Notes under the pieces: model-generated
The model's database searches: none
What the model was told of the DNA's origin: nothing
What the model saw: the letters and a program-made list of their open reading frames with translations, nothing else
Made by a program: the position numbers and the translations under genes
Shown here: in pieces, positions 18,579-38,099 of the stretch
Position numbering within the stretch: position 1 is the stretch's first letter
Layout: each line of letters opens with the position of its first letter
Assembly (NCBI RefSeq): GCF_000449425.2
Contig: NZ_AVHW01000028.1
Location: 62,001 to 126,000, forward strand
Reading direction: 5' to 3'
Length of the DNA: 64,000 bases
Source: Clostridioides difficile CD160
Lineage (GTDB): Bacteria; Bacillota; Clostridia; Peptostreptococcales; Peptostreptococcaceae

Positions 18579-18607
18579 TTGACATTTAAAACTTACTATT
18601 GTAATAT
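18579..18607 (+). promoter_or_regulatory. Promoter of the blaX-bla operon
   Basis: TTGACA (18579-18584), 17-base spacer, TAATAT (18602-18607). Both the spacer and the -10 lie within the 50-bp palindrome. The PBP promoter at 33244 has the same layout. The preceding DNA (18346-18578) has no gene. Confidence 0.85.
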
Positions 18608-18634
18608 TTAAATATTACAATAGTAAGTTTTAAA
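18585..18634. promoter_or_regulatory. Perfect 50-bp palindrome with two BlaI-type operators
   Basis: Bases 18585-18609 are the exact reverse complement of 18610-18634. Each arm contains CTTACTATTGTAATATTTAA, matching the TTAC-N4-GTAATAT motif found at the PBP and blaI promoters; here two copies face each other and overlap. BlaI/MecI repressors bind such TACA/TGTA dyads. Binding would cover the -10 and the start site. Confidence 0.85.
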
Positions 18635-18675
18635 AAAGAATAAATTATTACCTCACAAACTGAAAGGAGGACATA

Positions 18676-19392
18676 ATGATATTAATAGTTATATTAAGTA
18701 TCTTCATCATAACTTCAATCAAAATAATTATATTAGGTAAAGAAAATATAAGAGACATTGCTATCCCTTTAATCCTATTTATTGTTAGTGATTTTTTATT
18801 TTTGTGTGGAAACATCATATTTAGGGGAGGATTAATTCTACTATTTATAGGTTTATTTGCAATACCATTGATGTTAATTGCATTTATATGGATTTGTGTA
18901 CATATGGTTAAGCTTTACTATAAAAAAGCTCTAAATAAAAGAAAAATGATTGGATGTATATTTAGTATTTTTATAAGTATAGGTACTATATTTATTCCTA
19001 GTCCAAGTGAAAGTTTTAGATTTAAACTTTATGAAGAAGATTATAATGTAGTAGCTAAAGCTATTTTAAAAGCTTATGATGAAAAAAAGTTAAGCGATGA
19101 ATGTAATTTTTATATTAAATATGATACAAGTGAATTGGAGAAAATATTTTCTAAAGAAGTAATAAAAAAAATAGAAAAATTAAATAGAAATTTAAATGTA
19201 GTTAAAATCTCTGGAGATAAAAATTTAGTCTATTTTTTCTTTGGAGCCGAATTACAATCTGTTGATGGAGTTGTAATTGTTAAAGACTTGAAAGATGCTA
19301 AACCAAAATTAGATTTTATCAACAGAAGTATTCAAGCTCCTAGATTGGAGCATATTACAAACAATGTCTATTATTTTAAAGGTGGACTATAA
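18676..19392 (+). CDS. blaX: BlaX-type membrane protein upstream of the beta-lactamase
   Basis: A 238-residue protein with four hydrophobic segments in the first ~115 residues (ILIVILSIFIITS, IPLILFIVSDFLFLC, GLILLFIGLFAIPLMLIAFIWI, MIGCIFSIFISIGTIF), followed by a soluble C-terminal region probably outside the membrane. It resembles the small membrane protein encoded before the class D beta-lactamase in C. difficile, where the two are co-transcribed; the precise function is not known to me. AAGGAGG precedes the ATG, and bla follows 26 bases later. The name is from recollection of that operon. Confidence 0.75.
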   Translation: MILIVILSIFIITSIKIIILGKENIRDIAIPLILFIVSDFLFLCGNIIFRGGLILLFIGLFAIPLMLIAFIWICVHMVKLYYKKALNKRKMIGCIFSIFISIGTIFIPSPSESFRFKLYEEDYNVVAKAILKAYDEKKLSDECNFYIKYDTSELEKIFSKEVIKKIEKLNRNLNVVKISGDKNLVYFFFGAELQSVDGVVIVKDLKDAKPKLDFINRSIQAPRLEHITNNVYYFKGGL

Positions 19393-19418
19393 CTTATATA
19401 GAGGAGATAGTATAAAGT

Positions 19419-20357
19419 ATGAAAAGAAAAAATAATTTTATTTGGGCAGTTATCTTATTGATTGTTATAGCTATAGGAGTATATTATGTAGGAAAAAAGC
19501 ATAACAATACAAAACAAAAACATGATAAGAATTATATAAACTCTGAATTAAATAAATCTAAAATTGAAAACAATAATCAAAATAAAAAGGAAAAAATTAA
19601 TACAGTTGATTATAGCGATTGTTTTGAAAATATTAGTGGAGGAGCTATTTTTTATAACAGTAAAAATAAAGAATATAATATATATAACAAAGAGTTAATT
19701 GAAACAAGAAGGTCACCATGTTCTACTTTTAAAATAATTTCAACTCTAATTGGTCTAGAAAAAGGGGTAATAAACTCAAAAGAATCAGTTATGGGATATG
19801 ATGGTACAATTTATAAAAATGAAAATTGGAATAGAAATCTTAATTTAGAAGAGGCATTTAAGGAATCTTGTGTTTGGTACTACAAAAAACTATTAAATCA
19901 AGTTGACTCTAAATCTGTTCAAAAAATTCTAGATGATTTAAAATATGGTAATTGTGATATTAGTGAATGGGAAGGCGATTTAAAAAATGGAAAAGGACAT
20001 TTAAATGGATTTTGGTTAGAATCTTCATTACAAATATCTCCAAAAGAGCAAGCGGAAACAGTAGCAAAGATATTTGAAGGAGATACAAGCTTTAAAAAAG
20101 AGCATATTAATATTTTAAAAGATATTATGAAAATAGATGTAAATGATAAAAATATAAATTTGTATGGAAAAACTGGTACAGGATATGATAGAAAAAATCA
20201 ACGTGCAGATGCATGGTTTGTTGGTATGGTAGAAATTAAAGATGATACTTATTATTTTGCTATTAAATCAGATGATTCCAATAAAGAAGTTACAGGTCCA
20301 AAGGTAAAAGAGATTGCAATTAATATAATTAAGAAATACTATAATGTCACAAAATAA
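19419..20357 (+). CDS. bla: Class D beta-lactamase (CDD type)
   Basis: A 312-residue serine beta-lactamase. One N-terminal hydrophobic segment (residues 8-24), with no lipobox cysteine, suggests a membrane-anchored or exported enzyme. A Lys/Asn-rich linker leads to the catalytic domain: S102-TFK-K105, S150-C-V, Y176-G-N and K251-TG. These are the four class D signatures. It hydrolyses penicillins and probably cephalosporins outside the membrane. It shares its domain with the sensor part of BlaR1 at 35846-37645 (same SPxSTxK, WLESSL and KTGT positions). GAGGAGAT precedes the ATG, and a strong hairpin terminator follows at 20517. Confidence 0.93.
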   Translation: MKRKNNFIWAVILLIVIAIGVYYVGKKHNNTKQKHDKNYINSELNKSKIENNNQNKKEKINTVDYSDCFENISGGAIFYNSKNKEYNIYNKELIETRRSPCSTFKIISTLIGLEKGVINSKESVMGYDGTIYKNENWNRNLNLEEAFKESCVWYYKKLLNQVDSKSVQKILDDLKYGNCDISEWEGDLKNGKGHLNGFWLESSLQISPKEQAETVAKIFEGDTSFKKEHINILKDIMKIDVNDKNINLYGKTGTGYDRKNQRADAWFVGMVEIKDDTYYFAIKSDDSNKEVTGPKVKEIAINIIKKYYNVTK

Positions 20358-20516
20358 ACTTAATTTTATTTGCGAGTATAGCCTATTTAGTTATTAAATA
20401 ATTTTACTAAATTAAACATAAATATAGTATAAATTCTATAGTACATAAAATATTTGCTATTGAGTAATAAAATAAATCCTAATATATATTAAAATAAATG
20501 TTAATATCTCTTAGAG

Positions 20517-20568
20517 ACTATGCAATGTATTAAAAGTATAAATAAAATATGTTGCATAGTTTTTATTT
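20517..20568 (+). terminator. Terminator of the blaX-bla operon
   Basis: ACTATGCAA (20517-20525) pairs with TTGCATAGT (20552-20560), followed by TTTTATTTTA. It lies about 160 bases after the bla stop; the AT-rich gap between holds nothing else visible. Confidence 0.8.
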
Positions 20569-20649
20569 TACATTATAATCTTAAATAATATACAAAGATA
20601 TAATAAATGAAATTAAAAAATGAAATAATATTTTAAGGAGCTGAATGTT

Positions 20650-21156
20650 ATGGATAGACTACTAGATATTAGACCTGTATATGATGAAGATATTAAATTG
20701 ATAGAAGATTGGATTGAGCAAGAATATATACTTAAATGGTTTAAAAGTTCTGAAGAATGGATAAAAGAAATTAAAGCTAGATTTGGAGAATTTAGCTTTG
20801 TAAAACACTTTATTGTTATGTATGATAATATGCCAATTGGGTTTTGCCAATATTATGACTGTCTTAGTGCTAATGAAGTTTTTCACCCTGATATACCAAT
20901 TATAGGTACATTTAGTATAGACTATTTAATTGGAGAGGAAGAATATTTAAGGAAAGGTATTGGAAAAGCAATCATTAAATTACTTATACATAAAATATTT
21001 AACGAAACAGAAGCTGAAAGAATAGTAGTGAAGCCAGAAAAAGAAAATCTTGCTTCTTGTAACTCTTTAAGAACGAATAATTTTGAATACGATGAAGAAA
21101 ATGATTTATATTACTTGAGTAAGAGTGATTTTTTGAGCAAAAGTGACTTAGACTGA
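20650..21156 (+). CDS. GNAT-family acetyltransferase, aminoglycoside 6'-acetyltransferase-like
   Basis: A 168-residue GNAT protein. The order RPVYDEDIKLIEDWIEQEYILKW, then FSIDYLIGEEEYLRKGIGKAIIKLLIHKIF (acetyl-CoA loop RKGIGKA) and NNFEYDEENDLYYL resembles AAC(6')-Ib-type enzymes and related streptothricin or aminoglycoside acetyltransferases. The substrate cannot be assigned; many such chromosomal copies are not resistance genes. The C terminus carries a short repeated SKSDF/SKSDL tail. AAGGAG precedes the ATG. Confidence 0.75.
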   Translation: MDRLLDIRPVYDEDIKLIEDWIEQEYILKWFKSSEEWIKEIKARFGEFSFVKHFIVMYDNMPIGFCQYYDCLSANEVFHPDIPIIGTFSIDYLIGEEEYLRKGIGKAIIKLLIHKIFNETEAERIVVKPEKENLASCNSLRTNNFEYDEENDLYYLSKSDFLSKSDLD

Positions 21157-21246
21157 TTAAAAATAATTAAAAATATAAATGTGTTTATAAAATATAATTT
21201 GCCTAATTAAAGCAGGTATTTTAATAGTTGTTTATATTTAGATTTG

Positions 21247-21262
21247 TGTCACTATAATGTCA
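21247..21262 (+). promoter_or_regulatory. Direct repeat upstream of the ABC operon
   Basis: TGTCA occurs at 21247-21251 and 21258-21262, 11 bases apart, about 43 bases before the ABC start. Such helical-turn spacing fits an OmpR-type regulator, possibly the one encoded at 26015-26677. Low-information motif. Confidence 0.3.
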
Positions 21263-21304
21263 TTTTAGGTTGATAAAATTTAACCATAAAGGAGATGATT
21301 GTAT

Positions 21305-21988
21305 ATGGAAATACTAAAATGTGAAAATCTCACAAAAATATATGGTTCAAATCAAACTAGGGTGACAGCCCTAAATAATGTGAATTTATCAGTTCAAAAA
21401 GGGGATTTTGTATCCATTGTAGGAGCATCTGGCTCTGGTAAATCTACATTATTACACATGCTTGGAGGAGTAGATAGACCCACATCTGGGAAAATTTATA
21501 TTGAAGATACAGAAATAGCAAGTTTAAAAGAAGAAGCTCTTGCAGTTTTTCGACGTAGAAAAGTGGGTCTTATCTATCAATTTTATAATCTTATACCAAC
21601 TCTTGATGTTAGGAAAAATATATTATTACCGATGTTACTTGATAAAAGAAAAGTTGATGAAGATAGATTTTCTGAAATTGTATCTATATTGGGATTATCT
21701 GATAGATTAAATCATCTTCCAAGTCAACTTTCAGGTGGACAACAACAAAGAGTATCTATAGCTAGAAGTTTAATCTATAGACCAGCTATCTTATTAGCAG
21801 ATGAGCCAACAGGTAATCTCGACAGAAAAAATTCAGAAGAAATTGTAGATTTACTAAACTTATCGAATAAACGATTTAATCAGACAATACTTCTTATTAC
21901 TCATGATGAGAAAATAGCACTAGAAGCAAATCGTATTGTAACTATGGAAGATGGTGTGATTGTCTCTGAAAAGGTGGTGAAGAAATGA
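21305..21988 (+). CDS. ABC transporter ATP-binding protein (MacB/BceA type)
   Basis: A 227-residue ATPase with Walker A GASGSGKS (40-47), Q loop (IYQFYNLIPTLDVRKN), signature LSGGQQQRVSIARSL, Walker B ILLADEPTGNLD and the H loop (LLITHDE). It powers the FtsX-type permease that follows; the two overlap by 4 bases (ATGA). The ATG at 21305 is chosen because AAAGGAGATG lies about 8 bases upstream. Relatives export or neutralise antimicrobial peptides or lipoproteins. The two-component system at 24834-26677, convergent to it, is the likely regulator. Confidence 0.9.
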   Translation: MEILKCENLTKIYGSNQTRVTALNNVNLSVQKGDFVSIVGASGSGKSTLLHMLGGVDRPTSGKIYIEDTEIASLKEEALAVFRRRKVGLIYQFYNLIPTLDVRKNILLPMLLDKRKVDEDRFSEIVSILGLSDRLNHLPSQLSGGQQQRVSIARSLIYRPAILLADEPTGNLDRKNSEEIVDLLNLSNKRFNQTILLITHDEKIALEANRIVTMEDGVIVSEKVVKK

Positions 21989-24645
21989 ATATTCTTCAAG
22001 AATACACCTTAGACTTTGTACGACGCAATAAACGCAGTAGTATAGCTATAATGCTAGCCATATTACTTACTACAACAATGATGTCTTCTTTATGTGGACT
22101 GTTGTATACTATGTGGAGTGATTTCGTAAGACTTTCAATAGAGAAAGAAGGCAACTGGCATGGCGAATTATTTGATACTACCTATGGAAGCGACCTATCA
22201 TTAATTGAAAATTTTTCTTCAGTTGATGATGTAATGGTAAAAGGGCAATGGTATGTAGGAAAAATTAGTAATGACAAAAGAGATTATATAATTTATAGAA
22301 ATGCTACATCAGAATACTGGAACTCCATGCCAGAAAAAGACACTATACTAGAAGGTCGTCAACCAAAGAATGTTAATGAAATTGCACTTTCAAAACAGTA
22401 CTTTGAAAGTAATCCAAGTACAAAGATTGGCGATAAGATTACTATTCCAATAGGAAATAGAACTTTAAATGGAAATTCTCTTGAACCCGTAGCCCCAAAA
22501 TCAAAAAGCGAGAGTTTTAAAAAAACTTCAGAAATCACATTAACGATAGTAGGAAAAATGGATGTTACAACATCATCAGTTGTACCTGCATACACAGCTT
22601 TAGGATATTTGGACAAAAAAAGTATAAAACCCAATGATAATATAACTGTGTACTTACGATTTAAAAATATAAGAGATACATATAAAGAACTCCCAAAGCT
22701 TGCTAAGTCATTGGGGTGGAAAACTAACGAATATGGAAAATACAATCTTAAATACAATAGCAATTATCTTTTAAAGATGTTAGTCTTTTCTCCAGAACAG
22801 AAAGCATCTATGAATAGTATAGAAAAATTTGCAACTCCAATTATGTACTTTACAATAGCAATTTTTACAGTAGCAGTGTTTGTAATGGTGATTTACAATG
22901 CATTTTCATTATCAGCAAATGCTAGGCTTACTCAATTAGGGATACTATCTAGTATTGGTGCATCACCAAAACAAATTGAAAAATCTGTGGTATTTGAAGG
23001 TTTTTTATTGACTATTATACCTTTGCCAATAGGTTTATTTTTAGGCTGGTTATTGTGTGATAGGCTCATAATTTATATTAATTCAATTAATTCTTCTACA
23101 GGTACTCAAAGTGTAGTATATACTTATGGTATTCCTGCTTTTTTACCAGCAGTTTTACTTACAATAATAACAGTCTGGATTTCTGCACTTATACCAGCAA
23201 GAAAAGTATCAAAGATATCTCCTATAGAAGCAATACGACAAGGAGATAGTATTAAGATAAAAAAATCACATAAATATTCACTAGGAAAGATATTTGGAAT
23301 AGAGGGAGAACTTGCAATAAATGCACTTCATGCACGTAAAAAATCCTATCGTACTGCAACAATATCTTTAACACTATCTTTTCTATTGCTTACAGGGTTT
23401 TTGCATATAATCGCAAATCAAGAAGGAGCAGAAGCCGTCTATGGAAGTGATGTCTATCAAGAACAGAGGGATATATCAATCCATTTAGCAAATGGTGAAT
23501 CTGTAGAGCCTACTTTTATTGAAAAGTTAAGTAAGACAGAAGGTGTAAAGAGTTCATTATATTATCTTAAAATGTCTGCTACTACTTGGCTAACTGAAAA
23601 AGATGCCTCAAAAGAGCTTGCAGAAAATGGTGGATTTAAAGATGTAGTTTCATCTAAAAAATACTCTCCTATAGAACGTAATGGAAAGTTTCGTATATAT
23701 TCAGCTATAATTGGGCTTGATGATGATAGTTTTACAGAATACTGTAGACAAATTTCTGTAGACCCAAAGTTATTCTATGATACAGAAAATCCAACTTCAA
23801 TTGTATATAATAAAGAGGAGGATATTAATCGTAGTACACGAAGAGATAAAGTATATATAGATTATTTAAATCTTTCAATAGGAGACAATCTTAAATTAAA
23901 TGAAAGAATATCTGATGAAGATAAAGGCGATTATACTTTTAATATGAAAGTGGGAGCTATTACAAATACACTTCCTCAAATAATAAATACTAATTCAAGA
24001 TATACATTAATTCAAATAGTACCAATGTCTATAGTACAGGAAATATCTAAAAATTATAATGAAGAAGGTAGATTACGTTCAAATAATATGATGGGATTAT
24101 TTAAAGTAGATAATCGTGAGGATATTCCAAAAGTAAGAGGAAAACTAGAGTCTATTTACAATAAAGCTTATGGGTCTGGAGATTATAGTATTGAAGATGT
24201 CGTAGAAAATGAAGAAAAAGGTGCTAGTGGAAGAAAGACTATGAATTTAATAGTAAGCTTCATTACAGGATTGTTGGCTATGATTGGATTATCTAATGTA
24301 CTGGCTACAGTATCAGGAAATCTTAGAAGCAGACGACAAGAGTTTGCCATGTTACGTTCTGTTGGATTATCACCAGATGGTATAAAAAAGATGCTTGTTT
24401 TAGAAGGCTTATTTTTAGGAATTACACCATTATTACTTAGTATTCCTGTACAAATAGCAATAGTGTATATTTTTCTACGTATAAATGAAATACACTTTAT
24501 AGAGTATCTGCCATTTGCACCTTTATCTACAATAATAGGTTTTACTGTATTGATACTTTTTATTGTAATATCATCATATATGATAGGATATAAGCAATTA
24601 AAGAGTGAAAATATAGTAGAATCTATAAAAAATGAAACAATATAA
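21985..24645 (+). CDS. ABC transporter permease with two FtsX domains
   Basis: An 886-residue permease. A first helix (about 18-40) is followed by a ~240-residue external domain, three helices (about 285-420), another helix near 455, a second large external domain, and three C-terminal helices (about 755-880). This is the duplicated FtsX/MacB-like layout used for mechanotransmission or peptide resistance rather than bulk import. It pairs with the ATPase encoded just upstream. CGT and CGA arginine codons are common here, unlike neighbouring core genes, which may mark transferred DNA. Substrate unknown. Confidence 0.88.
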   Translation: MNILQEYTLDFVRRNKRSSIAIMLAILLTTTMMSSLCGLLYTMWSDFVRLSIEKEGNWHGELFDTTYGSDLSLIENFSSVDDVMVKGQWYVGKISNDKRDYIIYRNATSEYWNSMPEKDTILEGRQPKNVNEIALSKQYFESNPSTKIGDKITIPIGNRTLNGNSLEPVAPKSKSESFKKTSEITLTIVGKMDVTTSSVVPAYTALGYLDKKSIKPNDNITVYLRFKNIRDTYKELPKLAKSLGWKTNEYGKYNLKYNSNYLLKMLVFSPEQKASMNSIEKFATPIMYFTIAIFTVAVFVMVIYNAFSLSANARLTQLGILSSIGASPKQIEKSVVFEGFLLTIIPLPIGLFLGWLLCDRLIIYINSINSSTGTQSVVYTYGIPAFLPAVLLTIITVWISALIPARKVSKISPIEAIRQGDSIKIKKSHKYSLGKIFGIEGELAINALHARKKSYRTATISLTLSFLLLTGFLHIIANQEGAEAVYGSDVYQEQRDISIHLANGESVEPTFIEKLSKTEGVKSSLYYLKMSATTWLTEKDASKELAENGGFKDVVSSKKYSPIERNGKFRIYSAIIGLDDDSFTEYCRQISVDPKLFYDTENPTSIVYNKEEDINRSTRRDKVYIDYLNLSIGDNLKLNERISDEDKGDYTFNMKVGAITNTLPQIINTNSRYTLIQIVPMSIVQEISKNYNEEGRLRSNNMMGLFKVDNREDIPKVRGKLESIYNKAYGSGDYSIEDVVENEEKGASGRKTMNLIVSFITGLLAMIGLSNVLATVSGNLRSRRQEFAMLRSVGLSPDGIKKMLVLEGLFLGITPLLLSIPVQIAIVYIFLRINEIHFIEYLPFAPLSTIIGFTVLILFIVISSYMIGYKQLKSENIVESIKNETI

Positions 24646-24798
24646 ATAAAAGTTATCTGAATTAATTTAAGAGGAGCACGTTAAGACTATCTATAAGTAT
24701 AGTTAAATTATTTATTTAATAAAATGTGATTTATTTGATAAAGTCTAAAATATAACTAGAAATATATTGTTTAAATAATAGATAGAATAATAAATATG

Positions 24799-24835
24799 GC
24801 TGGATTATAGGATTTTACCTATAATCCAGCTTTTT
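24799..24835. terminator. Terminator between the convergent ABC permease and histidine kinase
   Basis: GCTGGATTATAGG (24799-24811) pairs perfectly with CCTATAATCCAGC (24818-24830), followed by TTTTT on the + strand. It ends the ABC operon and abuts the kinase stop. Confidence 0.9.
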
Positions 24836-26015
24836 ATGTATAAAATTTAATTATGAATCTTGCACCACCATTATGACAATTTTCTGCATGTAGAGTACCA
24901 TTTTGACGTTCTATAATAGACCTTGATAGAGCAAGTCCTATACCAATACTGTCTTTATGAGCATTTTTACCACGATAAAATCTATTAAAGATATATGGGA
25001 GTTCTTCCTGAGAAAACCCCTTACCATTATCCTCTATAATAATTTCAGCATATAAAGGGTTTTTGCTGTAATAAGCAATAATATGTCCACCATCTTCTAT
25101 ATGTTCACTACAATTTTTAAAAATATTTAAAAGAGCTTCTAACGTCCAATTAATATCAACTTCAAATTCTATTGAATCGGAACCTTTGATAGAAAGTGTT
25201 TGATGTTTTTCTTTTAAAGAATCTTCTATAGGCTCAACTGCATAAGTAAGGAGAGAATATATATCTATAAGTTTTCTTTCAAATATTAAAGTACTTGCAT
25301 CCAATTTTGATAATATAAGTAAAGATGAAACTAATCTCTCAAGTCTTGAAATTTGATTTGTTAGTCTATTAATATAATCTAGTTCTTCATCTGGACAAGT
25401 TTCTGCAAGTAATTGTGCCATAAGTGACATAGAAGTAATTGGAGTCTTAAGTTGATGTGCAATATCCGCAAGATTATCAGAGAGAGACTGTCTTTCTTTC
25501 AAAGCAAACTCTTTTGAACAACGAAGTTCCCCTACTGTTTTATATATCTCATCTTCAAGGTGAGAAAATTCATCTTCACATCGTACAAGCACAGATTCTT
25601 TTCCTGAATTTACTTCTTCTAAATATCGAGTAAGATTGTTTATTCTAATTATTTTTTGTTTATTCTGCCTACATTTAATTATATATACTACTAGAGCTAT
25701 TGTTGAAATTATAATAAATGAGACTCCTAAAAAGTAAAAAAAGTTTTTGCTCCAAAATGTATTTTTAGAGTATCCATACTTTAATAAAATCTCATTTCCT
25801 ATTTTAAAGTCATTGTTACCAGAATCTTTTAGAGATTTTAGTATATATTCTGTAGACTTAGGATTTAACTCGTATGATGCACCAATAGCTTTAGACATCA
25901 TCTTATATTCATCAAAAGAAGTTACAGTTGTTAGAATTACACTTAACAAAATAGTTATAGCTAAGCAGAATACTATAAAAACAAATGTATTATTGATATT
26001 TTTTGGAGTTTTCAC
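24834..26015 (-). CDS. Sensor histidine kinase
   Basis: A 393-residue membrane kinase with two helices (about 10-32 and 92-114) around a ~60-residue external loop, a short HAMP-like linker, the histidine in DIAHQLKTPITSMS, an N box (LLNIFKNCSEH), DNGKGF and GIGLALSR. The start is GTG 26015, overlapping the response regulator stop by one base with GGAGGAC upstream. Gene order (regulator then kinase, convergent to an ABC/FtsX exporter) suggests that it senses a substrate or stress handled by that exporter. Confidence 0.9.
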   Translation of the reverse strand: MKTPKNINNTFVFIVFCLAITILLSVILTTVTSFDEYKMMSKAIGASYELNPKSTEYILKSLKDSGNNDFKIGNEILLKYGYSKNTFWSKNFFYFLGVSFIIISTIALVVYIIKCRQNKQKIIRINNLTRYLEEVNSGKESVLVRCEDEFSHLEDEIYKTVGELRCSKEFALKERQSLSDNLADIAHQLKTPITSMSLMAQLLAETCPDEELDYINRLTNQISRLERLVSSLLILSKLDASTLIFERKLIDIYSLLTYAVEPIEDSLKEKHQTLSIKGSDSIEFEVDINWTLEALLNIFKNCSEHIEDGGHIIAYYSKNPLYAEIIIEDNGKGFSQEELPYIFNRFYRGKNAHKDSIGIGLALSRSIIERQNGTLHAENCHNGGARFIIKFYT

Positions 26016-26677
26016 TAGCTGTCCTCCATTCTATATCCTATGCCTCTCAATGTTTTTATACAAGGTGGATTTTTTAATTTTTCCCTAAGACGCTTTATTG
26101 TGACAGTAAGAGTGTTGTCATTGACAAAGTTGCCATCTACATCCCATAGCATTTCTAATAACTTTGTGCGAGTCATAGCTTTATTTTTATTTTCCATCAA
26201 GCTCAAAAGAAGTTTATATTCTCCTGCAGTCAAAAGCACTTCAACATTATCTAAATATACTTTGACTTCAACTTTATTCAATTTTATATTTTCGCATGTA
26301 ATAGTATTGTTAGTCTCAAAATGAGTTCGTCTAAGAACTGCATTAATTCTAGATTGGAGTACTGAAAGCAAAAATGGTTTAACCACATAGTCATCTGCTC
26401 CCATATCTAATCCATGTATAATATCTTTTTCATCATCACGGACTGTCAAAAATATCACTGGAGTATTTTCTATACTTTTGATATACTGACAAAATTCATA
26501 TCCAACACCATCAGGTAAATTTAAATCAAGCAGAACCAAATCAATAGTTTTATCGAAGTTTTTCTTAGCTTCAGCAATTGTATTATAACAACATATTGTG
26601 TGATTTTTCTTTTCAAGAGACGTTTTTATCCCAAATGTAATTGTATCATCATCTTCTAGAAGTAGTATTTTAGCCAT
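26015..26677 (-). CDS. OmpR-family response regulator
   Basis: A 220-residue regulator: acidic residues D9-D11, phosphoacceptor D51 in LLDLNLPDG, the lysine in VVKPF, and a C-terminal winged helix (NDNTLTVTIKRLREKL, TLRGIGYRME). It is the first gene of a two-gene minus-strand operon with the kinase. The upstream gap to the TetR gene (26678-26793) has no strong promoter pattern; a 10-bp inverted repeat (TTAGACTTAA at 26714 and its complement at 26788) may act as the TetR gene terminator. Confidence 0.9.
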   Translation of the reverse strand: MAKILLLEDDDTITFGIKTSLEKKNHTICCYNTIAEAKKNFDKTIDLVLLDLNLPDGVGYEFCQYIKSIENTPVIFLTVRDDEKDIIHGLDMGADDYVVKPFLLSVLQSRINAVLRRTHFETNNTITCENIKLNKVEVKVYLDNVEVLLTAGEYKLLLSLMENKNKAMTRTKLLEMLWDVDGNFVNDNTLTVTIKRLREKLKNPPCIKTLRGIGYRMEDS

Positions 26678-26793
26678 TTACTTTAAATCCTTTCTTAGTT
26701 TAAATTAGCAGCTTTAGACTTAATATTTTATCATACTGGAAATAGGGAAAAATATCATTTAAGTAATATAAAATTTATTTTACAAACTTAAGT

Positions 26794-27432: not shown

Positions 27433-27461
27433 ATAAATTGTTCCTTTCTATTGATAATAAT

Positions 27462-29081: not shown

Positions 29082-29144
29082 AAAAAGTAAGATATACAAC
29101 ATTGGATATATAATATTGGTTAAATATTGAGGAGGATTTTATAA

Positions 29145-29903: not shown

Positions 29904-29907
29904 AGAG

Positions 29908-30648: not shown

Positions 30649-31697
30649 TGAATTTAATAAATATTTTTAAGAATAATTTAAGAAGGAATATGAATAAAAG
30701 ATTGGTTTTTCTAGTTACAATTTTATTTCCTATAATTGTAGTAATTTTCGGGGTATTGGCAAATTACATAAGTAAACCATCTTTCAACATTGGTATTTTA
30801 AATGATTATAAAAATGAACAAGTTCTAAATGCATCTGAAAAAAGAATATATGAAAATACAATAATAGCTCTAAAAAATACTCAAGGAATAAATGTAGAGA
30901 CTGCAGACCTTAAAACAGTTAAAACTGATATTATAACTGGAAAGTATTCAGCTGTTATACATTTTAATAAAAATGATTTTAAATTATACTCTATAAAAGA
31001 TAAAGATACAAATAATACATTAAAGTATTTAATAGAAAGATATAAAAAAGAACCAACGACTATAGATATAAATAAACTACAAGAAATTTCTTTAGGAGCT
31101 TTACAAAGAATAATTGCATTTATTGTGTTGTTTTTAATGATAACATCTACTGTAACAGCATCTATGATTATTAAAGATAAAAAATCAGGTACATTTACAA
31201 GAATACTCTATTCTCCGCAAAATATAAAAGGATATGTGTTAGGGAATATGTTATACAACTTTACAATAACATATTTTCAGTACATAGTTTCAATATCCAT
31301 AATTAAGTTACTTAATATTGATATTGGAATGGATTACATAGAACTAATTTTTATAGGGGTGTGGGTATCAGCTTTAGCAACTTCTTTTGGAACATTTGTA
31401 TCTTCTTTATTCAATAAAGAGATGTATGCAAATTTATTTTCTACATGTATATCACTTATATTATCACTTATTGGTGGTTCATTCATTCCAATTGAGAAAA
31501 TGCCAACAATGTTACAAAAAATTAGTATTATAAGTCCAATGCGATGGTTTATCAGTTTTGTGACTTATGTAGAAGAGAGAAAAGGAAGTTTTTTCAATAT
31601 GAATTATATTTACATTTTAACATTCATGATAGTAGTTTTAATTTTATTAGCTATGAAACTTACTCAAACAAGTAAGTATTCAAGTCGTAATAATTGA
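30648..31697 (+). CDS. ABC-2 type permease, subunit 2
   Basis: A 349-residue permease starting at GTG 30648 with AAGGAGG upstream. One N-terminal helix (about 17-41), a ~120-residue external domain and five C-terminal helices give the YhgE/LinB-like ABC-2 layout; IGGSFIPIEKMPTMLQKISIISPMRW matches the same region of subunit 1. The operon ends at the hairpin at 31723. Confidence 0.88.
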   Translation: MNLINIFKNNLRRNMNKRLVFLVTILFPIIVVIFGVLANYISKPSFNIGILNDYKNEQVLNASEKRIYENTIIALKNTQGINVETADLKTVKTDIITGKYSAVIHFNKNDFKLYSIKDKDTNNTLKYLIERYKKEPTTIDINKLQEISLGALQRIIAFIVLFLMITSTVTASMIIKDKKSGTFTRILYSPQNIKGYVLGNMLYNFTITYFQYIVSISIIKLLNIDIGMDYIELIFIGVWVSALATSFGTFVSSLFNKEMYANLFSTCISLILSLIGGSFIPIEKMPTMLQKISIISPMRWFISFVTYVEERKGSFFNMNYIYILTFMIVVLILLAMKLTQTSKYSSRNN

Positions 31698-31722
31698 CTA
31701 ATATAAAACTTTGTATAATACA

Positions 31723-31766
31723 AAAAAGCCAATAAACTTTAATTTTTAAAAGTTATTGGCTTTTAG
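31723..31766. terminator. Terminator between the ABC-2 operon and the acetyltransferase gene
   Basis: AAAAAGCCAATAAACTTT pairs with AAAGTTATTGGCTTTT across a short AT loop, with one bulge. Poly-A/T on both sides suits both convergent transcripts. Confidence 0.8.
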
Positions 31767-31815
31767 TATTGTATCTAAGCCTTTTATTTAATTTAAAATA
31801 ATAGAATATAAATTC

Positions 31816-32475
31816 TTAGTATAACCATGACTTAGTATCAAAGCACATTTTTTGGATATCATCAATAAAGCAACTTACATGGTATCCATCAGTAGATGCA
31901 TGATGTACGGTTATAGAAAGAGGTAGAAGTATTTTTTCATCTTTTTGATAGTATTTACCTGCTTCAATTGTAGGGAAAAAATAATTTTCAAGACCATGAT
32001 TGTGTACAGTAAAACTCTTAAAACTAATCCACGGAATACAAGAAACTGTATAGCAATTTTTGGGTGGATTTGGTTTTGCTAGAAAACCATGATTTTTTCC
32101 GTACTCTTTAATGTCTGCCAAATAATTTTCATAGAATATCGAAAAATCTTTATCATATTCTGTCCATATTGATGAAAAAGTATTATTATCATCATGAAAA
32201 ATTGCATAGAATGGTGTTAATGTACTCCAATAGCCAAGTTCATTTTCATCATATGCAATTTTTAATTCTTTATATAGATTCAAGCAAGTTGTTATTATGT
32301 ATAAATATGCTGGATAAAATTTGATATTTCTTTTTTTCGTTTCATTAAGTAAATTGGTAATATCTATTTCTATAGTCAAATCAAATCCTACATTTGTCAT
32401 TTTTGAGAAATAGTAAAAATGTGTATATCGTTCCCAGTTTTGTAAATCAATTTTATGGAATTCTTGTTTACTCAT
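31816..32475 (-). CDS. Chloramphenicol acetyltransferase-like protein (type A CAT fold)
   Basis: A 219-residue protein matching CatA-type enzymes in length and order: opening FHKIDLQNWERYTHFYYF, and the catalytic motif VHHASTDGYHV (canonical HHxxxDG with the active-site histidine). These trimeric cytoplasmic enzymes acetylate chloramphenicol, although distant members may have other acceptors. It overlaps the preceding TetR gene by 8 bases and so shares its autorepressed promoter. This TetR control differs from the leader-peptide attenuation usual for plasmid cat genes. Confidence 0.85.
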   Translation of the reverse strand: MSKQEFHKIDLQNWERYTHFYYFSKMTNVGFDLTIEIDITNLLNETKKRNIKFYPAYLYIITTCLNLYKELKIAYDENELGYWSTLTPFYAIFHDDNNTFSSIWTEYDKDFSIFYENYLADIKEYGKNHGFLAKPNPPKNCYTVSCIPWISFKSFTVHNHGLENYFFPTIEAGKYYQKDEKILLPLSITVHHASTDGYHVSCFIDDIQKMCFDTKSWLY

Positions 32476-33046
32476 ATAAAATCACCATATTCTTTATAAT
32501 ATTTATTTGATTATCAATATCTTCATTTGTAAGTTTCAAAACAGGAGAAGATGTTTTCATACTATCGAATAAAAACATTATGTGTATTGCAATTGTTTTA
32601 GAATCACATTTTTTAAATTCACCTTTAGATTGTCCATAATCGATTAAATTTGAAAGCATTGTGATAGCTGAATTATATCTTTTATTCATATAATCACGTT
32701 GGTCTTTTTCTACAAAAGCAAATTCATGTATTGCAAAATTTAAACCACAATATTTATTATTTATATCATTTTTTTGTTGTTGTAAAAAATATTCTAATAT
32801 ATGCTTAGCTGATATATTTTCTTTGATACTTTTATCTAATAAACTTTGAGAATTGTCTTTATGAGTATTTAATATACTGATAAAAATTTCTTTTGTTGAA
32901 TTAAAGTGTCTATATAGTCCACCACGACTTAAGTTACATGCTTCACAAATATCTTTCATTGTTACATTGCTGTATCCTTTCTCAGAAAATAACATTATTG
33001 ATGTATCAATGATAAATTGTTTGGTTTGTTCTCCTTTTGTTGACAT
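32468..33046 (-). CDS. TetR-family repressor of the CAT-like gene
   Basis: A 192-residue TetR-type repressor (IDTSIMLFSEKGYSNVTMKDICEACNLSRGGLYRHFNSTKEIF). The start is ATG 33046 because AAGGAGGT lies 7 bases upstream; an upstream extension in the same frame is untranslated operator DNA. It is the first gene of a two-gene operon with the CAT-like gene. Its promoter is flanked by two GACAC-NN-GTGTC dyads, strong evidence for autorepression. Confidence 0.9.
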   Translation of the reverse strand: MSTKGEQTKQFIIDTSIMLFSEKGYSNVTMKDICEACNLSRGGLYRHFNSTKEIFISILNTHKDNSQSLLDKSIKENISAKHILEYFLQQQKNDINNKYCGLNFAIHEFAFVEKDQRDYMNKRYNSAITMLSNLIDYGQSKGEFKKCDSKTIAIHIMFLFDSMKTSSPVLKLTNEDIDNQINIIKNMVILYE

Positions 33047-33067
33047 ATCTTGTACCTCCTTTTTAAC

Positions 33068-33115
33068 GACACGAGTGTCTCTTTTAATTATGAGACACTT
33101 GTGTCGTTTTGTCAA
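33068..33115 (-). promoter_or_regulatory. Promoter and paired operators of the TetR-CAT operon
   Basis: On the minus strand, TTGACA (33115-33110), 17-base spacer and CATAAT (33092-33087). Dyads GACACTTGTGTC (33094-33105, in the spacer) and GACACGAGTGTC (33068-33079, just downstream of the start site) bracket the -10. Together they form a 16-bp inverted repeat with one mismatch. Confidence 0.85.
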
Positions 33116-33243
33116 TGCAAATTTATTTACTTTAAAATGACTGGATAATACTGTAATATTAATTTATAAAATGACTGGACAATGCAATAGGATTGATTTA
33201 CTTTTAAATTGATGTAAAGAGTAATTAAATACTAATAATATTA

Positions 33244-33276
33244 TTGACTTTTAAAACTTACGTGTGTAATATATAA
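33244..33276 (+). promoter_or_regulatory. PBP promoter overlapped by a BlaI-type operator
   Basis: TTGACT (33244-33249), 17-base spacer, TAATAT (33267-33272). The operator CTTACGTGTGTAATATATAA covers 33257-33276, in the same register over the -10 as at the bla promoter. Confidence 0.8.
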
Positions 33277-33376
33277 GTTACTATTAATTATATACTGCTT
33301 ACATATTTTGAGGGATAATTAAAACATAATAAAACCATAGAGCAGTTATATTCATAAGATTATTTTGAATTTAAAG

Positions 33377-33396
33377 ATTACATGTGTAATATATTA
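33377..33396 (+). promoter_or_regulatory. Second BlaI-type operator in the PBP leader
   Basis: ATTACATGTGTAATATATTA, matching TTAC-N4-GTAATAT, ends 7 bases before the PBP ribosome binding site. It lies about 100 bases into the transcript and could act as a roadblock. Confidence 0.7.
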
Positions 33397-33415
33397 AATA
33401 GTAAAGGTGGTTTGT

Positions 33416-35494
33416 ATGAGAAAAAATAAAAAAACAAGAAGAATGATAGTTTTTGGTTTTCTAATTTGTCTATTTACAGTTATTGTTGCTTTTTCAGCAA
33501 AATTTATATTAAATGGACTCAATAAAAGCAAACCAGATGAAGTATTTAAGCAATATATATCTTTTGCAAATGAAAGAAAATATGAAAAAATGTATGATTT
33601 GTTAGATGAAAAGAGTAAGTCAGAAAATAAAAAAGAAGATTTTATTTTAAGAAATAAAAAGATATATGAAGGAATTAACTCACACAATATGAGTGTCAAG
33701 ATTAATGATATTAAAAAAGAAAAAGGTAATGACAAAATAATAAAATATGATTCGAAGATGGATACTTTAGCAGGAGAAATTTCATTTTCAAATGAAGTAC
33801 TACTAACTAGAGATAGACATAAAAATTATAGAATAAAATGGCAGTCAGATGTTATATTTCCAGAACTTGAAGAAGATAATACTGTAAGAATATCAAAGCT
33901 TAAAGCTAAGAGAGGAAGTATTTTAGACAGAAATGGTGTAATGATTGCTGGTCAAGGTCTTGCATCTATGGTAGGGTTAGTTCCTAAAAAAATGAGTGAT
34001 AATATAGAGGACTTAAAAAAATTATCTGCTTTACTAAATGTACCAGTTGAACAAATTCAAAAGAAATTAAATGCATCTTGGGTAAAAGAAAATTCAATGG
34101 TACCTATAAAAACCATTGAAAAAATAGAAGAAAATGCGGATGGAACTGTAAAAGAAAAAGATAAAGAGTTGCAAGACTCACTTCTTAGTATTCCAGGAGT
34201 TAAGATATCTAATACAGAAGTCAGAGTGTATCCATTGGGTGAAAAAGCTGGTCATTTAACTGGATATGTTCAAAATGTAAACGCAGAGATATTAAAGGAA
34301 AAAGAAGGTAAGAGATATAATTCTAATAGTATAATTGGTAAGATTGGTTTAGAGAGTTTATTGGAAGATAGGATACGTGGTATTGATGGATATGAGATTA
34401 TCATAGCTGATAGATATGGAGATAAGAAAAAAACTCTAGTAACTGAGCCTAAAATAGATGGAGAAAATGTAAAGCTAACTATAGATTCAAAACTACAAAG
34501 TAAACTATATGAGCAAATGAAAAATGATAAAGGTTGTGCAGTAGTTATGAATCCTAAAACAGGAGAGATTTTATCACTTGTAAGTAGTCCATCGTATAAT
34601 CCAAATGAGTTTATATTGGGGATGTCAGGAGATAGATGGAAGGAAGTCAATGAAAATGAAAACAAGCCAATGTACAATAGATTTAAAGCACGATTGTGTC
34701 CTGGGTCTTCTTTTAAACCAGTTACTGCTGGTATTGGTATAACAACAGGAAAGATTAATCCAAATGAAAACTTTGGGCATAGTGGTCTTAGTTGGCAAAA
34801 AGATTCTAGTTGGGGGAGTTATAAGGTAACCACATTAAAAGATTATGGGAATACTGTAAATATGAAGAATGCGCTAATTTATTCTGACAATATTTATTTT
34901 GCTAAAGCAGCATTAAAAATAGGTGGAGATGTATTATCAAAAGAGTTGTTAAAACTTGGATTTGAGGAAAACATGCCATTTGAATTTGGATTATCTTCTT
35001 CAAGGTTTGGTACGGACAATAAATTTGATACTGAGATACAATTAGCAGATAGTGGATATGGGCAAGGTAAGGTTCTTGTAAATCCAGTACACATGGCATC
35101 AATATACTCAACTTTTGTTAATGATGGAGACATGATAAAGCCTTACCTTGAATTTAAAGAGAATCCACATGCTGAGTTTTGGAAAAAAGGTGTGTTTTCT
35201 AAGGAATCTGTAAAAATTATTCGTGATGACTTGATTCAAGTTGTTGAAAGTCCTAATGGTACAGGTCATAGTGCTGTGACTAAGGGAATTACTATTGCTG
35301 GGAAAACTGGTACAGCAGAAATTAAAGAATCTAAAGATGATGTTACAGGGACAGAACTTGGATGGTTCAATGCTTTTACTGTAGATGAAAACAGTGATAA
35401 ACAGTATATGGCAATTGCTATGGTTGAAGACGTAAAGAATCGTGGAGGAAGCCATTATGTTATACCTATTGTTAAATCAATATTTGAAGAGTAA
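33416..35494 (+). CDS. MecA-type (class B) penicillin-binding protein
   Basis: A 692-residue transpeptidase. One N-terminal membrane anchor (9-30), then an NTF2-like MecA_N domain (about 39-150, DEVFKQYISFANERKYEKMYDLL), a dimerisation domain (about 160-335) and the transpeptidase domain with S431-SFK, S490-DN and KTGT near residue 623. This order is that of low-affinity class B3 PBPs (PBP2a, Enterococcus PBP5), which crosslink peptidoglycan on the outer face of the membrane. ATG 33416 is chosen for AAAGGTGG 5 bases upstream. BlaI-type operators at the promoter and in the leader suggest beta-lactam induction. Actual drug affinity cannot be read from sequence. Confidence 0.88.
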   Translation: MRKNKKTRRMIVFGFLICLFTVIVAFSAKFILNGLNKSKPDEVFKQYISFANERKYEKMYDLLDEKSKSENKKEDFILRNKKIYEGINSHNMSVKINDIKKEKGNDKIIKYDSKMDTLAGEISFSNEVLLTRDRHKNYRIKWQSDVIFPELEEDNTVRISKLKAKRGSILDRNGVMIAGQGLASMVGLVPKKMSDNIEDLKKLSALLNVPVEQIQKKLNASWVKENSMVPIKTIEKIEENADGTVKEKDKELQDSLLSIPGVKISNTEVRVYPLGEKAGHLTGYVQNVNAEILKEKEGKRYNSNSIIGKIGLESLLEDRIRGIDGYEIIIADRYGDKKKTLVTEPKIDGENVKLTIDSKLQSKLYEQMKNDKGCAVVMNPKTGEILSLVSSPSYNPNEFILGMSGDRWKEVNENENKPMYNRFKARLCPGSSFKPVTAGIGITTGKINPNENFGHSGLSWQKDSSWGSYKVTTLKDYGNTVNMKNALIYSDNIYFAKAALKIGGDVLSKELLKLGFEENMPFEFGLSSSRFGTDNKFDTEIQLADSGYGQGKVLVNPVHMASIYSTFVNDGDMIKPYLEFKENPHAEFWKKGVFSKESVKIIRDDLIQVVESPNGTGHSAVTKGITIAGKTGTAEIKESKDDVTGTELGWFNAFTVDENSDKQYMAIAMVEDVKNRGGSHYVIPIVKSIFEE

Positions 35495-35582
35495 TTTTAC
35501 TCAATTTGAAGATTAATCTAATTGGCTTGGGGGATAGTATTGTAGAGGTATTATTTTCGAATTTGTTGGTAAATTTTAAAAT

Positions 35583-35619
35583 AAAGAGTCTGTCTTAAAA
35601 TAGAGAAGAGTCTCTTTTT
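35583..35619 (+). terminator. Probable PBP terminator
   Basis: AAAGAGTCT pairs with AGTCTCTTT apart from one mismatch, with further T residues after it. It lies about 90 bases past the PBP stop. Confidence 0.6.
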
Positions 35620-35664
35620 CATTGTTGAAATGATGAAAATATATTTGATTTCATACAAAAAATT

Positions 35665-35712
35665 AAAATAGTGGCAACAATTGAGGATGTGAGGGAGAGT
35701 TGCCACTATTTT
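35665..35712. terminator. Perfect 14-bp hairpin, probable bidirectional terminator
   Basis: AAAATAGTGGCAAC (35665-35678) and GTTGCCACTATTTT (35699-35712) pair perfectly around a 20-base loop. A/T tracts flank both sides; it may end both the PBP and blaR1 transcripts. Confidence 0.75.
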
Positions 35713-35845
35713 GTATAGGGTATTATATTATGTTTTTAAGCTAGTTTTACTATCTTCTATGTTTATATAATAACTCTTGTGTGTGAATTTAATAGATAAT
35801 TCATATGAAAATTATGTGAAGTTTTTGTACTTTATAGTAAAGGTA

Positions 35846-37645
35846 TTAGGGGTTATAGATTTTTTTGTCATTTAATATAGATAGTGTTATTTCAGCTGCT
35901 GAACTACCATTAGAATAATCTTTACTTTGAATATTTGTAGCAAAGAAATAAGTATTTTCATTTTTTTCTACATAACCTATAAACCAACCATTTACATCTT
36001 TTCCATTTATAGTAGCAGTGCCTGTTTTACCAGAAAGTGATACTCCATCTTTTTTTGATACTAGCAATGAATCTTTTACAGTTTTTATATCTTTGTCTTT
36101 AAATTTAAACTCATTTGTATAAAAATCTTTAAGTAATTTCACCTGTTCAATAGGTGAGATTTTTAATGAGGATTCTAGCCAAAAGCGTGATATGCCTCCT
36201 GAAACATCGTAATTACCATACTTAATTTGTTTAAGATAAGTTTGTATATCTTTTATTCCTGTTTTTTTATCTATATATTGAAAATACCAATTTACAGAGT
36301 TTTCCATAGCAGAAAATAGGTCTTGGTCTTTATTCCATGAGCTGTTAGAATGATGTTTTCCGTCCCAAGGAATATATGAATTATTTCTTGTTATTATCCC
36401 ATTTTCTAATCCCAACAAAGCACTATATATTTTATATGTAGAATTTGGAGAAACTCTTTTTTTACTTTTTTCTTCATTGTAAATATGATATTGATTGGAT
36501 TTTAAATCATACATAACAAAACTACCATCAAAACCTTCAAAGTAGTTACTTAGGTCTTCATATATAGTTTGATTATTTATAGGTTTATATTCTTCATTAA
36601 CATCTGCCACAATGGATAGTGTAGGGCTGTTTCCAAATACAATTAAAGCAATCAATGTAAAAATTAAAATGCTTTTAAACTTTAAAAATTTTGATTCAGC
36701 ATGAAAATTTGCTATCTTTAATAATCTTCTTTTTATCTGTTTTTTTGACCCACTGATATTTGATGTAAGTGTGAGATTATATGGTCTTGAAATATTATCT
36801 ACAAAATTTATTAGTGTTTGTCCATATTCTATATAATTTTCTTTATCAAGTTTTTTCAAAACTGAAATGTCACATGCAATTTCACGGTCTACTCGCATTT
36901 CTTTAAGTGCACACCACACAAGAGGATTAAACCAGTACAATATTTGGAAGAAGCACATTATATAATTTACCAATATATCTCTGTTTTTAGAATGTTGTAA
37001 TTCATGAAGTAAAATATATTTTATATCATTTGAAGATAATTTAGATATAGACTCATCTGGTAATATAATATGTGGTTTAAAGTATCCAAATGTAATGGGT
37101 GTATTTATGATGTAGGATTTACATAATATAAAATTCTTATTTATCCCAATATCTTTTTTACACTGTTGAAATATTGAAACTATCTCATCATCTTCTAAAA
37201 TTTGTGCAGATTTTTTTATATTTCTTATTTTAAAATTACAATGAATAGCAATAACTATCATTATTGAAATACCAACTATCCATAATATTAATAATAAAAT
37301 ATTTAAACTGTCAAAATTAGATTGATTCAGAGATACTGAAAAATCTTTTAATGCATTTGAGTTATTAATAATACTACTTGAGCTATTTTTTATTGTAGAA
37401 GTATTAGCAGTATTGTTTTCAAATTGAGTAAAACCATGTAGATAGTTAAACATATTTCCGAGATTAATATATTTAAGAGGTATAAATGGAATTATTAATG
37501 TTATAAGCAATATAAATCCAATATTATATTGGTATTTTGCAGAAATGTGCTTATTAAATATTTTTTTAGTAAATAAAATTACAATAATCAACAATGATAG
37601 GGTTAATGTACTAAATAAGAATCGGATAAAGAATGGAGCATACAT
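35846..37645 (-). CDS. blaR1: BlaR1-type beta-lactam sensor-transducer
   Basis: A 599-residue membrane receptor. Helices in the first ~135 residues frame an M56 metalloprotease domain with the zinc motif H214-ELQH-218; a helix near 323-340 leads to an external class D-like sensor domain with S402-TYK-405, YGN and KTGT. Acylation of the sensor serine by a beta-lactam should activate the protease and lead to BlaI removal. The gene starts 3 bases after blaI, with a ribosome binding site inside the blaI end. Its sensor domain closely resembles the beta-lactamase at 19419-20357, suggesting a shared origin. Confidence 0.93.
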   Translation of the reverse strand: MYAPFFIRFLFSTLTLSLLIIVILFTKKIFNKHISAKYQYNIGFILLITLIIPFIPLKYINLGNMFNYLHGFTQFENNTANTSTIKNSSSSIINNSNALKDFSVSLNQSNFDSLNILLLILWIVGISIMIVIAIHCNFKIRNIKKSAQILEDDEIVSIFQQCKKDIGINKNFILCKSYIINTPITFGYFKPHIILPDESISKLSSNDIKYILLHELQHSKNRDILVNYIMCFFQILYWFNPLVWCALKEMRVDREIACDISVLKKLDKENYIEYGQTLINFVDNISRPYNLTLTSNISGSKKQIKRRLLKIANFHAESKFLKFKSILIFTLIALIVFGNSPTLSIVADVNEEYKPINNQTIYEDLSNYFEGFDGSFVMYDLKSNQYHIYNEEKSKKRVSPNSTYKIYSALLGLENGIITRNNSYIPWDGKHHSNSSWNKDQDLFSAMENSVNWYFQYIDKKTGIKDIQTYLKQIKYGNYDVSGGISRFWLESSLKISPIEQVKLLKDFYTNEFKFKDKDIKTVKDSLLVSKKDGVSLSGKTGTATINGKDVNGWFIGYVEKNENTYFFATNIQSKDYSNGSSAAEITLSILNDKKIYNP

Positions 37646-37647
37646 AT

Positions 37648-38034
37648 TTACTTATCCTCCTTAGTCACCCTTTTGTTTAAAATCTCTCTCAATTCCTCAA
37701 TATCATCTTCAGAGAGTTTATCATTTTCTAAAAAGTTTAGTACCATAGAATTAAGAGCACCATTATAAAAACGATTTAAAAAAGAACGACTTTCTTTAGC
37801 TACATATTCTTCTTCCTCAACAAGTGGAGTATAAACGAACACTCTACTATTTTTTTCATATGTCAAAGCTCCTTTTTTAACTAATCTTAACAACATTGTC
37901 TGAATTGTTTTAGGACTCCATGTACTTATTTCTACTAGTTTTTCAATTACTTCATTAGTGCTAATAGGAGCATATTTCCAAATAATCTTCATCACTTGAT
38001 ATTCTGCTTCTGAAATTTGTGGTAATTTTTTCAT
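37648..38034 (-). CDS. blaI: BlaI/MecI-family repressor
   Basis: A 128-residue repressor with the BlaI winged helix (ISEAEYQVMKIIWKYAPISTNEVIEKL, WSPKTIQTMLLRLVKKGALTYEK) and a C-terminal dimerisation helix pair. It should bind TTAC-N4-GTAA dyads and be inactivated through BlaR1. AAGGAGG precedes the ATG. Matching operators lie at its own promoter, at the PBP gene and at blaX-bla, defining a three-operon regulon in this window. Confidence 0.93.
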   Translation of the reverse strand: MKKLPQISEAEYQVMKIIWKYAPISTNEVIEKLVEISTWSPKTIQTMLLRLVKKGALTYEKNSRVFVYTPLVEEEEYVAKESRSFLNRFYNGALNSMVLNFLENDKLSEDDIEELREILNKRVTKEDK

Positions 38035-38050
38035 GATATACCTCCTTATA

Positions 38051-38099
38051 CTTACATTTGTAATATATAAAGTATATTATCATTAATTTGGTTTGTCAA
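38051..38099 (-). promoter_or_regulatory. blaI-blaR1 promoter and BlaI-type operator
   Basis: On the minus strand: TTGACA (38099-38094), 17-base spacer, TATACT (38076-38071). The operator, read on the + strand as CTTACATTTGTAATATATAA (38051-38070), directly follows the -10 and covers the transcription start. Confidence 0.85.

What the first reader, a model, noticed from the sequence alone, without database searches (positions are those of the whole stretch)
18579..38099. A BlaI regulon that appears to include a MecA-type PBP
The motif TTAC-N4-GTAATAT lies on the promoters of blaX-bla (18585-18634), the class B3 PBP gene (33257-33276, plus a leader site at 33377-33396) and blaI-blaR1 (38051-38070). 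Three promoters have TTGAC(A/T)-N17 layouts with the motif over or just after the -10. Established: BlaI/MecI repress beta-lactamase and mecA through such dyads. Inference: this organism co-induces a beta-lactamase and a low-affinity transpeptidase, a native analogue of mecA control.
Basis: partly seen in the sequence, partly recalled or inferred. Interest (0 to 1): 0.75.

Follow-up and report, generated by a model that had tools for sequence, protein, structure and literature searches.

The report
Penicillin-sensor switch controls spare wall enzyme
In the Clostridioides difficile group, the switch that turns on a penicillin-destroying enzyme appears from its DNA sites also to control a neighbouring spare cell-wall-building enzyme (PBP5), an inherited counterpart of the control circuit of MRSA that has yet to be tested at the bench.

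Summary
Exact TTAC-N4-GTAATAT dyads lie at the promoters of blaX-bla (two, inverted), a class B3 PBP gene (promoter and leader) and blaI-blaR1. The PBP corresponds to C. difficile PBP5 (pbp5), a variably present gene whose role in imipenem resistance was left open in 2018. Its regulation was not found in the papers searched.

Comparative tests support control by BlaI. The pbp5 operator pair is present in 6 of 6 pbp5-bearing Clostridioides genomes. Operator cores are invariant in 26 of 30 columns, flanks in 80 of 232. The leader operator matches a published MecI/BlaI consensus perfectly. A matrix trained only on blaX and blaI sites ranks the two pbp5 sites next in the window. None of 16 comparable PBP loci from other genera of the family, nor 18 from a phylum sample, has such an operator nearby. 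PBP5 is under purifying selection (dN/dS 0.11-0.16), keeps its place beside the same genes, and is a relic in one species. The motif count alone is no evidence: it does not exceed controls.

This is a native one-repressor regulon joining a class D beta-lactamase and a MecA-fold transpeptidase: a new member of a known kind. Induction, BlaI binding and low drug affinity are inferred, not shown.

The parts
18579..18607 (+). blaX-bla promoter: -35 TTGACA, 17-nt spacer, -10 TAATAT
   Evidence: sequence
18590..18629 (.). blaX-bla operator: two inverted BlaI dyads
   Evidence: upstream of bla both dyads exact in 6 of 7 genomes with bla, one exact in the seventh, G004
18676..19392 (+). blaX, putative membrane protein
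19419..20357 (+). blaCDD class D beta-lactamase
   Evidence: NCBIfam blaCDD 667.6 bits, cut-off 600
33244..33272 (+). pbp5 promoter: -35 TTGACT, 17-nt spacer, -10 TAATAT
   Evidence: 45 of 50 columns of 33243-33292 invariant in 6 genomes
33255..33272 (+). pbp5 operator 1, over spacer and -10
33375..33392 (+). pbp5 operator 2 in the leader, just before the ribosome-binding site; perfect published MecI/BlaI consensus
33416..35494 (+). pbp5, class B3 penicillin-binding protein (ORF tool start 33407)
   Evidence: motifs SSFK 434, SDN 493, KTGT 633 in 33407 numbering
35846..37645 (-). blaR1, beta-lactam sensor and M56 protease
   Evidence: NCBIfam blaR1_generic 798.4 bits, cut-off 400; HELQH 214, STYK 402
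37648..38034 (-). blaI, repressor
   Evidence: Pfam Penicillinase_R; aligns to MecI and BlaI structures; Asn100-Phe101
38049..38066 (-). blaI-blaR1 operator, just after the -10
38071..38099 (-). blaI promoter: -35 TTGACA, 17-nt spacer, -10 TATACT
   Evidence: kept in the 7 genomes with blaR1-blaI

Best explanation
One BlaI-BlaR1 pair controls three promoters: its own, that of blaX-blaCDD, and that of pbp5. Without drug, BlaI dimers sit on dyads over the -10 regions (blaX, pbp5), just after the -10 (blaI) and on a second dyad in the pbp5 leader, and block transcription. A beta-lactam acylates the BlaR1 sensor (STYK), its protease domain (HELQH) cuts BlaI at Asn100-Phe101, and beta-lactamase and PBP5 are induced together: one destroys the drug, the other supplies a spare transpeptidase. 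Shown here: the sites, their conservation, the genes and their catalytic motifs. Inferred: binding, induction, cleavage and the spare-transpeptidase role.
For: Operator pair upstream of pbp5 in 6 of 6 genomes, core starts 149-163 and 28-29 nt before the codon aligned with 33407. Operator cores invariant in 26 of 30 columns against 80 of 232 flanking columns, Fisher p 4e-8. Published MecI/BlaI consensus (quoted in PMC5341023, passages seen): leader site 0 mismatches in the window and 0-1 in 5 of 5 relatives, blaX and blaI sites 1, pbp5 promoter site 2 in the window and 0-1 in 4 of 5 relatives. Matrix trained on blaX and blaI sites only: pbp5 sites rank directly after the training sites; 0 and 12 as good in 3.0 Mb of random sequence, both strands. 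Exact sites outside this contig lie on contigs without any Penicillinase_R match, so the motif fits this repressor rather than its paralogs. blaR1-blaI follows pbp5 on the contig in 5 of 6 genomes; the sixth contig ends there. dN/dS of pbp5 0.11-0.16 in 15 of 15 pairs. Beta-lactams induce the class D beta-lactamase in two C. difficile strains (PMC6299217, passages); C. difficile has BlaR1-pathway components controlling it (PMC9834060, passages, citing Sandhu 2019, which was not held).
Against: No binding or expression data for pbp5. The promoter operator in the window departs from the published consensus at 2 positions. The exact motif is no commoner in the genome than its reversed control, and the leader site alone scores only moderately by matrix. 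The operator spacing varies (120-135 bp), so a DNA loop of fixed phase is unlikely. Low affinity of PBP5 is untested. The gene is dispensable for the group: reduced to a fragment in G003, absent in G007 and absent in strains 630 and R20291 (PMC10128037, passages).
Confidence: 0.82

Rival explanations
1. A different BlaI/MecI/CopY-family paralog binds the pbp5 sites, so pbp5 answers another signal than beta-lactam.
For: The genome holds 24 Penicillinase_R matches, 22 over the family cut-off and one more with its neighbours in the frame, and the wider family shares a TACA/TGTA core that is by itself a poor predictor of binding (PMC7253601, passages).
Against: The same motif stands at the blaI promoter and at bla in the 7 genomes that have them (one change in the last core base at blaI in 3 of 7). 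Exact sites elsewhere in the genome are on contigs without a paralog. The best-scoring paralog in this genome is 35% identical to BlaI.
Confidence: 0.1
2. The sites are chance likeness of A+T-rich promoters with TAATAT -10 boxes.
For: Exact matches in the genome do not exceed the reversed-pattern control, 11 against 16; 12 random places in 3.0 Mb score as well as the leader site.
Against: Both sites kept in 6 of 6 genomes amid diverged flanks; 0 of 16 and 0 of 18 comparable PBP loci elsewhere carry such a site; by eye no -35 box is conserved before the leader site.
Confidence: 0.03
3. pbp5 is BlaI-controlled but is not a resistance enzyme: an inducible repair transpeptidase, itself inhibited by clinical beta-lactams.
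For: The best-matching solved sequence is an entry named Penicillin-binding protein 3, ahead of PBP2a; all RT017 isolates of PMC5875251 carry pbp5, 3 of 25 of them imipenem-susceptible; the gene is lost in some lineages.
Against: PBP2a and the enterococcal PBP5 entry named low affinity are among the next matches, and the gene is kept under the switch of a beta-lactamase.
Confidence: 0.4

Closest known systems
S. aureus BlaR1-BlaI control of blaZ and mecA
   Same: One sensor and one repressor control a beta-lactamase and a MecA_N-type transpeptidase (PMC9834060, passages) through dyads of a shared consensus
   Different: There mecA is acquired on SCCmec; here the PBP gene keeps one chromosomal place through the genus, the beta-lactamase is class D, and there is a second operator in the PBP leader
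Macrococcus mecD with mecR1m-mecIm
   Same: A mec PBP with an operator of the same published consensus (PMC5341023, passages)
   Different: Divergent genes with one shared operator, own MecI pair, no beta-lactamase gene in those strains
C. difficile beta-lactamase under BlaRI (Sandhu 2019, not held; cited in PMC9834060)
   Same: Same beta-lactamase and regulator genes
   Different: pbp5 as a further target; strains 630 and R20291 lack pbp5 (PMC10128037)
C. difficile PBP5 (PMC5875251, PMC10128037)
   Same: M68 PBP5 spans 2088 bp, as does the GTG-started ORF here; orthology rests on length, class and being the one such extra PBP of the genus, its sequence was not compared
   Different: Neither text, as far as seen, mentions BlaI or its regulation
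Enterococcal PBP4(5)
   Same: Best NCBIfam model, 577.7 bits
   Different: Below the model cut-off of 700; that these lack BlaI control is recalled, not tested by name

Membership tests
BlaI/MecI regulon | BlaI-family repressor with BlaR1 partner in an operon | tested here: met
BlaI/MecI regulon | Asn-Phe cleavage site in the repressor, HExxH and SxxK in the sensor | tested here: met
   NF 100, HELQH 214, STYK 402; cleavage between N101 and F102 in PMC3305447 (passage)
BlaI/MecI regulon | Dyad operators at the target promoters matching the published consensus | tested here: met
   0-1 mismatches except the promoter-proximal pbp5 site, 2 in the window
BlaI/MecI regulon | Repressor binds and beta-lactam induces | not testable with these tools
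   needs EMSA and mRNA measurement
Class B3 (MecA-fold) PBP | MecA_N, PBP_dimer and transpeptidase domains with SxxK, SxN, KTG | tested here: met
MecA/MecB/MecC/MecD proper | Score over the curated NCBIfam cut-off | tested here: not met
   443.1 bits against 750 for the PBP2a family, and 359-394 against 1450-1525 for the single mec models
Enterococcal PBP4(5) equivalog | Score over the curated cut-off | tested here: not met
   577.7 bits against 700
Low-affinity PBP | Slow acylation by beta-lactams | not testable with these tools
   none

The most novel reading that the evidence does not exclude
The C. difficile group carries a native, vertically inherited counterpart of the MRSA circuit: drug-induced PBP5 is a low-affinity transpeptidase that, with the co-induced class D beta-lactamase, sets the beta-lactam response of pbp5-bearing lineages. 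This would have been missed because the common model strains 630 and R20291 lack pbp5.
Probability: 0.45. Interest if true: 0.68.

Novelty: new member of a known kind. Interest (0 to 1): 0.52.

Why it matters
PBP5 occurs in C. difficile lineages ST3(001), ST11(078) and ST37(017)/ST81(369) (PMC10128037, passages), and Isidro 2018 left its part in imipenem resistance open. Control by BlaI would explain when it is made and why uninduced tests could miss it. It would also show that joint control of a beta-lactamase and a B3 PBP by one repressor, known from MRSA, exists as an old chromosomal system in Clostridia.

Tried and rejected
Listing further regulon members: the 15-mer is too common to find them (11 exact against 16 reversed-control matches; 317 against 277 for a longer pattern with up to 3 mismatches). 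Of the 6 exact sites outside the three promoters, 5 are inside long frames and 1 is unassigned. The weaker matches were looked at only in part (loci L131-L147). No further member is claimed.

BlaI control of B3 PBPs as a general rule: not supported. 0 of 16 MecA_N PBP loci (open frames of 671-687 codons, 15 genomes, two loci being identical contigs of one genome) of other genera in the family have TTACN4GTAA in the 300 bp upstream; L118, a 323-codon frame, fell below the script's length limit, and L121, a 308-codon frame, was given only to and showed none. 0 of 18 further loci from a 299-genome phylum sample (E up to 1e-100) have a core dyad within 350 bp, with 4 or more mismatches to the published consensus. 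Where such a gene sits inside an operon, its promoter may lie outside these stretches.

pbp5 as recent mobile cargo (PMC5875251 says it is encoded in a mobile element, inserted in distinct contexts): not supported across the genus. In 6 of 6 genomes it follows the same TetR-CAT pair, and blaR1-blaI follows it in 5 of 6, the sixth contig (G002) ending first; in G005 about 6 kb lies between. The scan of viral contigs confirmed no relative, megablast of 32400-38100 found none in phages, and in plasmids 490 of 490 records with a match stay below 60% identity. PMC10128037 already argued for gradual loss.

The genome-contig scan with the genus alignment gave 8 loci: two Clostridioides records (HC132, CD10-165) and six distant Bacteroidota PBPs; it served for naming. 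No structure prediction was run. Sandhu 2019 and the Isidro technical appendix could not be read, so either may hold remarks on pbp5 regulation.

Full report
Identity of the place. The window lies in a 4.76-Mb genome of a genus of which 8 genomes, this one included, were searched. The own record is unnamed. The class D beta-lactamase passes the blaCDD cut-off.

Sites. Exact TTACN4GTAATAT matches are confirmed at three promoters with TTGACA/T, 17-nt spacers and TAATAT or TATACT boxes. At blaX and the PBP the -10 box is the right end of the operator; at blaI the operator begins 4 nt after the -10. The count alone proves nothing: 90 two-mismatch matches against 73 expected in the window, 11 exact against 16 reversed controls in the genome.

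Independent tests. (a) The published MecI/BlaI consensus, quoted in PMC5341023 (passages seen), finds the leader site with 0 mismatches, the blaX and blaI sites with 1 and the pbp5 promoter site with 2; the only other window place with at most 1 is 32385, inside the CAT coding sequence. With 2 mismatches allowed, 15 matches against 9.5 expected are no clear excess. In the five relatives with pbp5 the promoter site has 0-1 mismatches in 4 (L052, L056, L058, L060; not L054) and the leader site in 5. (b) A matrix from 4 distinct blaX and blaI sites, pbp5 left out, ranks the pbp5 sites directly after the training sites (19.7 and 14.9 bits, next 13.2); 3.0 Mb of random sequence gave 0 and 12 as good. 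The leader site alone is thus only moderately rare. (c) Both sites stand in 6 of 6 genomes with pbp5; operator cores are invariant in 26 of 30 columns, flanks in 80 of 232, p 4e-8 (the columns of related genomes are not independent, so the p is a guide). The block 33243-33292, from the -35 to 20 nt after the -10, is invariant in 45 of 50 columns.

Specificity. There are 24 Penicillinase_R matches in the genome. The exact sites outside this contig lie on C6, C61, C95 and C110, which carry none of them. The blaI operator is present in 7 of 7 genomes with blaR1-blaI, four exactly and three with one change in the last base of the core. The dyads before bla are an exact pair in 6 of 7 genomes with bla; G004 has one exact and one altered dyad.

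The PBP. Domains are MecA_N, PBP_dimer and Transpeptidase; the SSFK, SDN and KTGT motifs are invariant in 6 sequences. Identity to the window protein in the genus is 84-92% and dN/dS 0.11-0.16 in 15 of 15 pairs. C. difficile PBP5 of M68 spans 2088 bp and is given as 696 aa (PMC10128037, passages seen); the ORF here is 2088 bp. [quoted passage not shown] Neither text, as far as seen, mentions BlaI. Searches for BlaI with C. difficile or PBPs (0, 12, 3 and 27 papers, all listed) and for pbp5 or PBPs with C. difficile (4 listed; 25 of 73 listed; 25 of 654 listed) showed no title or abstract on pbp5 regulation; most subscription papers are outside the library.

Gain and loss. pbp5 is full-length in 6 of 8 genomes; G003 has a fragment (residues 596-649) between the TetR gene and a full-length blaR1-blaI; G007 lacks bla, blaR1 and pbp5 and keeps a blaI frame without its promoter or first codon beside the end of the next gene. 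Gene order around is broadly shared, with differences: G001 lacks the GNAT, PadR and ABC2 genes and most of blaX and has about 6.5 kb of other DNA there; no GNAT match in G004 and G006; about 6 kb between pbp5 and blaR1 in G005; a contig end there in G002. This favours an old locus with losses, as PMC10128037 suggested, rather than recent arrival.

How unusual. 0 of 16 MecA_N PBP loci from other genera of the family and 0 of 18 from a phylum sample have such an operator in the stretch examined. BlaI control of a chromosomal B3 PBP is therefore a particular trait of Clostridioides among those sampled, with mec loci as the known parallel.

Mechanism. Shown: sites, conservation, catalytic motifs of sensor and repressor. 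From established work: BlaR1 cleaves BlaI after sensing beta-lactam and induces blaZ and mecA in S. aureus (PMC9834060, passages); cleavage between N101 and F102 (PMC3305447, passages); beta-lactams induce the class D beta-lactamase of two C. difficile strains (PMC6299217, passages). Inferred: the same switch here for pbp5, with the leader operator as a roadblock. Its distance from operator 1 (120-135 bp between genomes) does not keep a helical phase, which speaks against a fixed DNA loop. The function of PBP5 under drug is a separate, open question.

Noticed in passing
window 33066-33107: Inverted repeat (ACGACAC...GTGTCGT arms) before the TetR-CAT pair, largely kept in the 6 aligned genomes; a likely TetR operator for a chloramphenicol-acetyltransferase-like gene.
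   Followed up: partly
L076 (G003) 1041-1202: pbp5 reduced to a fragment beside full-length blaR1-blaI.
   Followed up: yes
L078 (G007:C1), blaI at 482527-482907 of the contig: blaI frame kept without promoter, start codon, blaR1, bla or pbp5.
   Followed up: partly
L001 (G000:C6:28477-28491): A dyad identical to the blaI operator core, in no long reading frame and with no evident gene start.
   Followed up: partly
window 33273-33292: Highly conserved stretch after the pbp5 -10 (ATAARTTACTATYAATTATA in the 6 genomes) that resembles a degenerate second dyad, as at blaX.
   Followed up: no
own genome, 24 places: 24 Penicillinase_R (BlaI/MecI/CopY-family) matches in this genome; with BlaI as query 20 here and 9-18 in the seven other genomes of the genus.
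   Followed up: no
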